Made by a program: the position numbers and the translations under genes. The notes under the pieces are model-generated. The model was given only the letters and a program-made list of their open reading frames with translations, made no database searches and was not told the DNA's origin. From positions 6,510,001-6,574,000 of the forward strand of contig NZ_FNSV01000005.1 in NCBI RefSeq assembly GCF_900105905.1: a DNA stretch of 64,000 nt. Direction: 5' to 3'. Every line of letters begins with the position of its first letter. Position 1 is the stretch's first letter. Positions 43,962-45,056 of this stretch are shown piece after piece. This stretch comes from Rhodococcus koreensis. Lineage in GTDB: Bacteria > Actinomycetota > Actinomycetes > Mycobacteriales > Mycobacteriaceae.

Positions 43962-43967
43962 TAGGAA
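43962..43967 (+). promoter_or_regulatory. Putative -10 element for a leaderless leader peptide
   Basis: TAGGAA, TA-initial like actinobacterial -10 elements, with its last base 7 bp before the GTG at 43975. This spacing puts transcription start at or next to the GTG, so the leader peptide would be translated from a leaderless message. Confidence 0.4.
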
Positions 43968-43974
43968 TTGCTTC

Positions 43975-44049
43975 GTGCATACGACTCACCTGGTGCGACG
44001 CCTGACCGTCGACCTGTGCCGTACGTGCGCCAACATCTGTTGTTGCTGA
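43975..44049 (+). CDS. Cysteine-rich leader peptide (attenuator) upstream of tauD
   Basis: 24 codons starting with GTG: begins MHTTHLVRRLTVDLC and ends CRTCANICCC, with five Cys, three of them consecutive immediately before the stop. This is the pattern of polycysteine leader peptides, which have been shown in mycobacteria to attenuate sulfur genes: ribosomes stall at Cys codons when Cys-tRNA is low and expose the downstream gene. There is no ribosome site, fitting leaderless translation. A second 19-codon ORF (44049-44108) starts on the overlapping TGATG and would be translationally coupled. The target gene, a sulfonate-type dioxygenase 140 bp downstream, makes sense. Confidence 0.75.
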   Translation: MHTTHLVRRLTVDLCRTCANICCC

Positions 44050-44189
44050 TGGCCCCGGCGCGCGTACCGCGTGCTGTCCATTCCTCGGTAGGCTCCGGCA
44101 TCCGGTAATTCCTCACGCATCCTCCGCGTTCGCAGGTCCGGGCCGGTGCTCCCGTACCCAGGCACGATCCACCTTCGCGGAAAGACATC

Positions 44190-45056
44190 ATGAGCACTGC
44201 ATTCGAAACCAGGACAGCGTCGCTGACGCTCGACAAGTTCGGCCCCTCGTTCGGGGCCGAGATCATCGGACTGGACGTCGCGTCCGCCACCGACGCCGAG
44301 GTGGCCGCGATCCGTTCGGCGCTGACCGAGCACAAGGTGCTGGTCCTGCGGGGCCAGTCGCTCGACGACTCGGGCCACATCGAGTTCGGTCGCCGGCTCG
44401 GTCGGCTTACCGCGGGCCACCCCGTCCACGACAGCGGCAACGTGGCCCGGGAGGTGTACGCGCTCGACAGCCAGGACAACGGTTTCGCCGACGTGTGGCA
44501 CACCGACGTCACGTTCATGAAGCGGCCGCCGCTCGGGTCGATCCTCCGTCCCGTCGTCCTCCCACCGCACGGCGGCGACACCAACTGGGCCGACAGCCAA
44601 CTGGCGTACGAGTCGCTGTCGCTGCCGATCCGGCAGATGATCGACCAGCTGACCGCGGTCCACGACGGCAACCGCGAATTCGGGTACTACCTCGCGCAGA
44701 AGCGCGGCGGCAAGGGAAACGTCTGGGACGGTGAGGAAGTCACCGCACTCGTGCCCGTCGAGCATCCCGTCGTGCGGGTTCACCCGGAAACGGGCCGCAA
44801 GGGCATCTTCGTGAACCCGGGCTTCACGTCCCACATCGCCGGAGTCTCCGAGGCGGAGAGCCGGGGGATCCTCGACTTCCTGTACGCCCACCTCACCAAA
44901 CCGGAGCACGTCGTGCGGCACCGCTGGCGCCTCGGCGACCTCGTGCTGTGGGACAACCGCAGTACCGCGCACTACGCGAACCGCGACTACGGAACCCAGC
45001 ACCGCGTCATGCACCGCATCACGCTGGAAGGCGATGTGCCGGTGGGCCCGCAGTAG
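44190..45056 (+). CDS. tauD: TauD/TfdA-family Fe(II)/2-oxoglutarate dioxygenase
   Basis: 288 residues, taurine-dioxygenase family. Iron ligands His104-x-Asp106 (WHTDVTF) and a distal His in [13 protein letters not shown]; the 2-oxoglutarate Arg is expected in the following RVMHR. It would oxidise taurine, an alkylsulfonate or a sulfate ester and release sulfite for cysteine synthesis. The cysteine leader upstream supports a sulfur-scavenging role over herbicide-type degradation (TfdA). Length matches TauD. Exact substrate unknown. Start ATG 44190 with GCGGAAAG upstream. Confidence 0.85.

What the first reader, a model, noticed from the sequence alone, without database searches (positions are those of the whole stretch)
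43975..44108. Cysteine-rich leader peptide ahead of a TauD-type dioxygenase
A 24-codon GTG ORF ends CRTCANICCC and stop, with a -10-like TAGGAA placed for leaderless transcription and a second short ORF coupled by TGATG. This is the architecture of mycobacterial polycysteine attenuators (established for sulfur-assimilation genes). Here it would make TauD expression rise when cysteine is short, and it supplies evidence that the dioxygenase scavenges sulfur.
Basis: partly seen in the sequence, partly recalled or inferred. Interest (0 to 1): 0.8.

Follow-up and report, generated by a model that had tools for sequence, protein, structure and literature searches.

The report
Cysteine-sensing leader peptide before tauD
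A tiny 24-codon reading frame ahead of a sulfur-scavenging enzyme gene belongs to a large family of leader peptides that sit before sulfur genes in many actinobacteria, and what marks the family is not a run of cysteines but one cysteine codon, nearly always spelled UGU, at an exact distance from a conserved peptide motif.

Summary
GTG ORF 43975-44049 (VHTTHLVRRLTVDLCRTCANICCC*) has a -10-like TAGGAA 7 nt upstream and precedes tauD. A related leader lies within 400 nt of 29 of 80 tauD orthologues. In six genomes read where tauD follows the transporter genes, the leader heads that operon, and three rhodococci keep a tauB remnant between leader and tauD. The window's genome has nine such leaders, mostly ahead of recognisable sulfur genes. 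A cysteine-responsive leader is therefore well supported by comparison, untested by experiment. A profile that stops at VDLCR found 99 leader-like ORFs in 59 other actinobacterial genomes. 97 of 99 have Cys exactly nine residues after the Asp, 55 have only one Cys from D+4 on, and that codon is TGT in 93 of 97, while Cys at D+2 in the same leaders is TGC in 42 of 47. This suggests a ribosome that stalls at one UGU codon, possibly helped by the nascent chain. A known kind of system, with a new rule.

The parts
43962..43967 (+). -10-like element TAGGAA, 7 nt before the leader GTG (leaderless spacing)
   Evidence: TA stands at -13 (23) or -12 (4) before the leader start in 27 of 27 distinct upstream sequences of tau-type leaders.
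43975..44049 (+). leader ORF VHTTHLVRRLTVDLCRTCANICCC*
   Evidence: relative within 400 nt of 29 of 80 tauD orthologues; pN/pS 0.40 over codons 2-24, 0.24 in codons 6-16, among 20 distinct 24-codon leaders.
43990..44022 (+). conserved core LVRRLTVDLCR (codons 6-16); Asp codon 44011-44013
   Evidence: L (D-7), R (D-4) and D in 99 of 99 and R at D+3 in 96 of 99 leader-like ORFs, with several synonymous codons in use. (The search profile itself contains these positions.)
44038..44040 (+). TGT cysteine codon at Asp+9, proposed decision codon
   Evidence: Cys at D+9 in 97 of 99 leaders found with a profile that ends at D+3; TGT 93, TGC 4. TGT in 21 of 24 distinct tau-type leaders and 8 of 9 own-genome leaders.
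43975..44030 (+). possible RNA hairpin over the first 19 codons of the leader
   Evidence: 89.6% of cells pair over 22 sequences; not beyond synonymous recoding for the window copy (z -0.58 and -1.28), z about -1.5 to -3 in most Rhodococcoides-type leaders, between -0.6 and +0.4 in the Streptomyces and Microbispora copies.
44049..44108 (+). second short ORF (TGATG overlap); judged incidental
   Evidence: start or frame not kept in close relatives.
44050..44189 (+). leader-tauD spacer; tauD Shine-Dalgarno GGAAAG at 44179-44184
   Evidence: fold no more stable than shuffles (z -0.58 and 0.74); one SD-masking pairing predicted in the window copy, not consistent across relatives.
44190..45056 (+). 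tauD, Fe(II)/2-oxoglutarate dioxygenase, 288 aa
   Evidence: PF02668 E 6.4e-65; best PDB sequence match E. coli TauD 1gqw E 2.6e-66, AtsK 5e-57, Rv3406 3.9e-52; NCBIfam taurine dioxygenase model 277 bits, cut-off 313.

Best explanation
The element is a cis-acting, cysteine-responsive leader peptide of the actinobacterial cis_reg_atten / Ms5788A type, controlling tauD. Transcription starts at or next to the GTG, so the leader is translated as a leaderless mRNA (inferred). When Cys-tRNA is short the ribosome halts with the UGU codon at Asp+9 in the A site, two to four codons before the stop in most of the family (inferred; in this copy two more Cys codons follow). The halted ribosome keeps the downstream mRNA in a state that lets tauD be expressed; when cysteine is plentiful the ribosome finishes and leaves and expression falls (inferred, by analogy with the published mycobacterial leaders). 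The conserved core, lying 8 to 12 residues from the P-site residue at that moment, probably strengthens or sets the stall (inferred). The leader came with the tauCAB-D sulfonate uptake operon, and the window's stand-alone leader-tauD arose by loss of the transporter genes (supported by comparison of gene orders).
For: Leader conserved ahead of tauD: 29 of 80 loci. Of the other 51, 46 have an ABC-ATPase motif within 1.5 kb upstream on the same strand; in 5 of the 10 ABC-type genomes searched the leader lies about 3 kb upstream of tauD, ahead of permease, binding protein and ATPase; a sixth genome (L011/L295) has the same order. tauB remnants lie between leader and tauD in L036, L037, L039 (E 3e-4 to 2e-3). 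Nine own-genome leaders precede rhodanese sets (2), sulfite reductase, OsmC plus O-acetylhomoserine sulfhydrylase, cystine-like ABC permease, family-5 binding protein, SDF symporter, a short flavin-monooxygenase-like protein, and tauD. Of 98 ORFs after leaders in other genomes: rhodanese 37, sulfite reductase 23, APS kinase 5, PAPS reductase 5, luciferase-like monooxygenase 5, SDF 4, PALP 2, TauE 2. D+9 Cys 97 of 99, TGT 93 of 97, against TGC 42 of 47 at D+2 in the same leaders. UGU is followed by 2-4 sense codons before the stop in 78 of 97 (D+9 Cys of either spelling). -10 spacing 27 of 27.
Against: No expression data. The leader scores below the curated cut-offs of both NCBIfam leader models. 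How a stalled ribosome would switch tauD on is not visible: no terminator, no general complementarity between any leader segment and the spacer (mean z +0.06 to -0.48 over up to 99 leaders), no consistent change of SD accessibility on modelled stalling (23 leaders), and the C-rich spacer is no argument for Rho, because tauB-tauD spacers are C-rich too (27 of 28). In 5 of the 10 ABC-type genomes searched no leader at E up to 0.01 lay near tauD. Three tau-type leaders (L036, L038, L039) and 4 of 97 others spell the D+9 codon TGC. The downstream ORFs were picked by a heuristic.
Confidence: 0.75

Rival explanations
1. Plain poly-cysteine codon-counting attenuator: only the number of Cys codons matters and the rest of the peptide is filler.
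For: The window copy has five Cys in its last ten codons, three in a row before the stop; mycobacterial leaders of this kind are described in print (passages).
Against: 55 of 99 leaders have one Cys from D+4 on and nearly all still keep D+9. The core is kept at the amino-acid level with free synonymous codons. Three tau-type leaders have only two Cys (L020, L026, L043) and one has a single Cys (L042).
Confidence: 0.2
2. RNA-structure switch: the leader RNA is conserved for its hairpin, and pairing alone (or pairing moved by the ribosome) controls tauD.
For: A long hairpin is predicted in each of the 11 leaders folded (shuffle z -1.2 to -4.7); 89.6% of cells pair over 22 sequences; z about -1.5 to -3 against synonymous recoding in most Rhodococcoides-type leaders.
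Against: Window copy z -0.58 and -1.28; Streptomyces and Microbispora copies between -0.6 and +0.4; covariation only slightly exceeds the shuffles; no common pairing with the spacer.
Confidence: 0.12
3. The small peptide is a functional product acting in trans (for example a thiol or metal binder), and regulation is incidental.
For: It is under purifying selection as a peptide (pN/pS 0.40 overall, 0.24 in the core) and is Cys-rich.
Against: Selection on the codon spelling TGT at one position (93 of 97) points to decoding rather than to the product; the leaders lie ahead of sulfur genes.
Confidence: 0.05

Closest known systems
NCBIfam NF042934 cis_reg_atten and NF042933 leader_Ms5788A (actinobacterial leader peptides)
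   Same: Core and tail align (residues 4-22 and 4-24); three own-genome paralogues reach the NF042934 cut-off (35.1, 29.4 and, with its frame neighbours, 27.2 bits; cut-off 27).
   Different: The window leader scores 8.8 (cut-off 27) and 16 bits (cut-off 45): a divergent tau-type branch with RRLTVDLCR.
Polycysteine leaderless short ORFs of mycobacteria (Canestrari et al. 2020; paper not held, known from passages)
   Same: Leaderless spacing, run of Cys codons before the stop, located ahead of sulfur genes.
   Different: Different target (tauD; I could not see that paper's list of targets); in the wider family the Cys run is optional while one TGT codon at D+9 is nearly constant.
TnaC of the E. 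coli tryptophanase operon
   Same: Short leader whose critical Trp12 and Asp16 lie 12 and 8 residues before Pro24 in the P site (PMC8429421 passages). Here Arg(D-4) and Asp lie 12 and 8 residues before the P-site residue if UGU is in the A site.
   Different: No sequence relationship claimed; TnaC senses free tryptophan at a stop codon. The parallel is one of geometry.
Classical amino-acid attenuators such as his and leu leaders (recalled)
   Same: Codons of the regulated amino acid near the end of a leader, here spelled with the rarer codon.
   Different: No terminator in the window copy and no general leader-spacer pairing.

Membership tests
NF042934 cis_reg_atten | score at or above the curated cut-off (27 bits) | tested here: not met
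   8.8 bits; the window leader is not in the own-genome hit list at E up to 10.
NF042933 leader_Ms5788A | score at or above the curated cut-off (45 bits) | tested here: not met
   16 bits, 15.1 bits in the genome search.
Polycysteine leaderless attenuator of mycobacteria | leaderless transcription of the leader | tested here: inconclusive
   -10-like element with leaderless spacing, kept in 27 of 27 distinct upstreams; RNA 5' end not measured.
Polycysteine leaderless attenuator of mycobacteria | contiguous Cys codons | tested here: met
   TGT TGT TGC TGA at 44038-44049.
Polycysteine leaderless attenuator of mycobacteria | located ahead of sulfur metabolism genes | tested here: met
   tauD, or the transporter operon with tauD, in relatives; own-genome and family-wide neighbours.
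Polycysteine leaderless attenuator of mycobacteria | downstream expression responds to cysteine through the Cys codons | not testable with these tools
   Needs reporter assays.
Classical hairpin attenuator | terminator or SD-masking structure alternative to a leader hairpin | tested here: not met
   No terminator; no general leader-spacer complementarity; SD accessibility inconsistent.
Nascent-chain arrest peptide (works like, not member of) | amino-acid motif at fixed distance from the stall codon | tested here: met
   Cys at D+9 in 97 of 99. Arrest itself not testable here.
TauD (PF02668) dioxygenase | gathering score; Fe and 2-oxoglutarate ligands | tested here: met
   220 bits against 27. 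By eye on the alignment the residues aligned with H99, D101, H255, R266 of E. coli TauD are kept (residue roles recalled).

The most novel reading that the evidence does not exclude
Across the actinobacteria, sulfur genes are controlled by a nascent-chain-gated single-codon sensor: the LxxRxxVDLxR peptide, seated in the exit tunnel with Arg and Asp 12 and 8 residues from the P-site residue, makes the ribosome hypersensitive to Cys-tRNA supply at one UGU codon placed exactly nine codons after the Asp codon. Poly-cysteine runs are a later local elaboration, and tauD in the window is one target.
Probability: 0.35. Interest if true: 0.85.

Novelty: new variant of a known kind. Interest (0 to 1): 0.7.

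Why it matters
It links an unassigned TauD to sulfur supply without any assay, and indicates that the regulatory element belonged to the tau transport operon and outlived the loss of the transporter genes in rhodococci. More broadly, it replaces 'poly-cysteine' by a sharper, testable rule (core, nine-residue spacing, UGU), which lets short leaders be found in GC-rich genomes, marks sulfur-responsive genes of unknown function, and raises a concrete question: does the nascent chain set which codon the ribosome waits at?

Tried and rejected
Second ORF at TGATG as coupling device: rejected, not conserved in close relatives. Intrinsic terminator: none. Rfam: no family at gathering level in L122, the locus that holds the window leader; sub-threshold hits are chance-like. 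SD masking relieved by stalling: the window copy goes from 0.32 to 0.50 accessibility with the A site at codon 22, but 23 leaders show no consistent direction. Long-range pairing of leader and spacer: no segment stands out over 99 leaders. Rho (rut) site after the leader stop: C exceeds G in 95 of 99 spacers against 49 of 99 upstream controls, but also in 27 of 28 tauB-tauD spacers (12 of 19 window upstream regions), so it is not specific. TGT explained by RNA stability: changing T to C is neutral on average (mean -0.22 kcal/mol over 93). RNA hairpin as the conserved object: see rival 2. Rows dropped before the D+9 count: 10 of 109 hits, by context only (no stop within 27 residues of the Asp or no start 5-25 codons upstream), listed; one of them (L240) also has Cys at D+9. 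Hits above E 0.0624 (order) and 0.0543 (class) were not examined. The two leaders without Cys at D+9 are L201 (ends before that position) and L213 (Cys at D+10). The binomial P assumes independent sequences and is not used. In one search the upstream stretch was shorter than 1.5 kb for four of the 29 leader loci (L027, L034, L036, L037), so an ABC gene further up was not excluded there. My first reading of L295 as lacking tauD (ORF list) was wrong: one search shows a WHTDVTF-coding frame after its tauB.

Searches for print (PubMed Central subset only). None of the listings showed a tauD leader, the D+9 rule, or the UGU preference; papers outside this library were not seen.

Full report
WHAT IS THERE. 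The window lies in a 10.3-Mb genome close to Rhodococcus opacus and R. wratislaviensis (TauD 97% identical in both). The leader ORF runs 43975-44049 and reads VHTTHLVRRLTVDLCRTCANICCC; TAGGAA (43962-43967) stands seven bases before its GTG; tauD (44190-45056) starts 140 nt after the stop. An ORF with at least five Cys in its last ten codons occurs once in the window and in none of 20 dinucleotide shuffles. The overlapping second ORF is not kept: the TGATG becomes TGACG in L007-L010 and L018, and the reading frame after it differs in L004-L006.

CONSERVATION AHEAD OF TAUD. Of 80 tauD orthologue loci, 29 have a leader of this pattern within 400 nt (Rhodococcus, Rhodococcoides, Antrihabitans, one Williamsia, one Gordonia), and in none of these 29 was an ABC-ATPase motif found in the upstream stretch held (up to 1.5 kb; shorter in four); 46 of the 51 others have one on the same strand, and 5 have neither. 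Among 20 distinct 24-codon leaders, T4, L6, R8, R9, D13, C15, R16 and C22 never change while the last Cys is Arg in 15; 17 start with GTG and 3 with ATG; pN/pS is 0.40 overall and 0.24 in the core. The -10-like TA is at -13 or -12 in 27 of 27 distinct upstream sequences, which fits leaderless transcription.

ORIGIN. I searched 14 genomes with the leader profile, 10 of them of the ABC type. Pfam names permease, binding protein and ATPase between them in L164 and L167, permease and binding protein in L165 and L168 (their ATPases were not submitted), and permease and ATPase in L166, where the binding-protein frame did not come out as a listed ORF; TauD follows. In the other five no leader at E up to 0.01 lay near tauD. 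A sixth genome, that of L011, has the leader ahead of permease, binding protein and ATPase, followed by a frame with the TauD motif WHTDVTF; in another (L294) leader and the three transporter genes stand without that motif in the remaining 1.4 kb. L036, L037 and L039 carry about 20 residues of a decayed ATPase between leader and tauD (60-68% identity, E 3e-4 to 2e-3). So the leader most likely belongs to the tau operon, and the window's arrangement is a shortened one.

THE OWN-GENOME REGULON. The profile finds nine leaders in the window's genome at E up to 2.7e-5. The genes behind them: two DUF4395-rhodanese sets, a sulfite reductase, OsmC plus O-acetylhomoserine sulfhydrylase, a permease nearest to cystine transporters (below that model's cut-off), a family-5 binding protein, an SDF symporter, a short protein with a partial match to a flavin monooxygenase model, and tauD. 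Two of the nine follow a SAM riboswitch directly.

THE RULE. In all these leaders a Cys falls nine residues after the Asp of the VD motif. To test this without bias I built a profile that ends three residues after the Asp and searched 41 genomes of the order and 40 of the class, three of them, including the window's own, in both sets. I took every listed hit outside the own genome down to E 0.0624 (order, 63 hits) and 0.0543 (class, 46 hits not already in the order set), 109 in all, fetched the DNA where no locus was held and kept those in a short-ORF context, with no condition on Cys: 99 hits in 59 genomes. Cys at D+9: 97 of 99. Elsewhere: D+2 47, D+7 30, D+8 6 of 99, D+10 8 of 96. Shuffling the tails of the 94 distinct sequences gives 15.9 on average and 29 at most, against 92 observed. 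55 of 99 have a single Cys from D+4 on, so poly-cysteine is not what defines the family.

THE CODON. At D+9 the codon is TGT 93 times and TGC 4 times; at D+2 of the same leaders TGT 5 and TGC 42; at D+7 TGT 7 and TGC 23; in coding-like ORFs of the same loci TGT 14 and TGC 149. The core, by contrast, uses many synonymous codons (CGC, CGG, CGT, CGA and AGG for the invariant Arg). TGT at D+9 is also the rule in the tau-type leaders (17 of the 20 of 24 codons, and all four of other length or register: 21 of 24) and in 8 of 9 own-genome leaders. The relatedness of the genomes is not corrected for; D+2 in the same molecules is the internal control. The third base is not explained by folding.

WHAT FOLLOWS THE LEADERS. 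Pfam on 98 downstream ORFs (heuristic choice of ORF; one of the 99 leaders had none in reach) gives rhodanese 37, sulfite reductase 23, APS kinase 5, PAPS reductase 5, luciferase-like monooxygenase 5, SDF 4, PALP 2, TauE 2 and smaller numbers of others, some of them not obviously sulfur genes.

HOW IT PROBABLY WORKS. Shown: conserved peptide core, constant spacing, constant codon, sulfur neighbours, leaderless-type promoter spacing. Inferred: a ribosome short of Cys-tRNA waits at UGU, and this lets the downstream gene be expressed. In TnaC, Trp12 and Asp16, 12 and 8 residues before the P-site Pro24, are critical (passages of PMC8429421); here Arg(D-4) and Asp would sit at the same two distances with UGU in the A site. 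That is a parallel of geometry, not homology. How the wait is converted into tauD expression is open: no terminator, no common pairing, no consistent SD unmasking, and the C-rich spacer does not distinguish Rho control from ordinary spacers. A leader hairpin is predicted in the tau-type leaders folded but exceeds synonymous recoding clearly only in Rhodococcoides-type leaders.

THE ENZYME. TauD family by Pfam and by PDB sequence search, nearest to E. coli taurine dioxygenase, with AtsK and Rv3406 behind. By eye on the printed alignment the metal and 2-oxoglutarate ligands and the residues aligned with H70 and R270 are kept, while the positions of Y73 and N95 are His and Ala (residue roles recalled). 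Taurine itself is therefore not assured; another sulfonate or a sulfate ester is possible. In R. qingshengii IGTS8 a TauD and a choline sulfatase are reported as uniquely present, and MetY as raised, in the sulfate-starved dibenzothiophene culture, and TauA, TauB and cystine-transport proteins stand in a table whose heading I did not see (passages of PMC8557817); I did not check that its TauD proteins are orthologues of this one. [quoted passage not shown]

COMPARISON WITH THE KNOWN. NCBIfam already holds two leader models that this peptide resembles but does not satisfy. Mycobacterial polycysteine leaders are in print; I saw that work only through passages of other papers, because the paper is not held. 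The element is a new variant of that kind. The D+9 UGU rule appeared in none of the listings of my paper searches, which cover open-licence papers only.

Noticed in passing
L129:1397-1600 (G000:C3 about 6865690+) and L123:1397-1560 (G000:C3 about 6858468+): A SAM riboswitch (RF00162, 54 bits) ends a few bases before a leader of this family, and the leader's likely Shine-Dalgarno lies at the aptamer's 3' end: a possible SAM gate on a cysteine leader. A leader with TGT at D+9 is present at all 12 loci read for the L129 type, the own copy included; 7 of 7 of these submitted to Rfam have the aptamer.
   Followed up: partly
L036, L037, L039 between leader and tauD: Decayed fragment of an ABC ATPase gene (about 20 residues), a trace of the lost tau transporter genes.
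   Followed up: yes
D+6 position of the leader family: Ser at D+6 is spelled AGC or AGT in 67 of 73 cases rather than TCN; unexplained second codon preference in the same leaders.
   Followed up: no
L236 (G051:C18:30445- and 30585+), L187/L237 (G062:C57:40392- and 40497+), L196/L248 (G052:C1:6931191- and 6931388+): Two leaders of the family back to back on opposite strands, with about 60-170 nt between the two core motifs, each ahead of its own gene set.
   Followed up: no
A3 alignment, columns 1-56 (Rhodococcoides-type leaders): The leader's first 19 codons can fold into a long hairpin that includes the start codon, more stable than synonymous re-codings in this clade.
   Followed up: partly
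L274:677-890: Ms_IGR-5 sRNA (RF02471, 82 bits) about 100 nt upstream of a leader.
   Followed up: no
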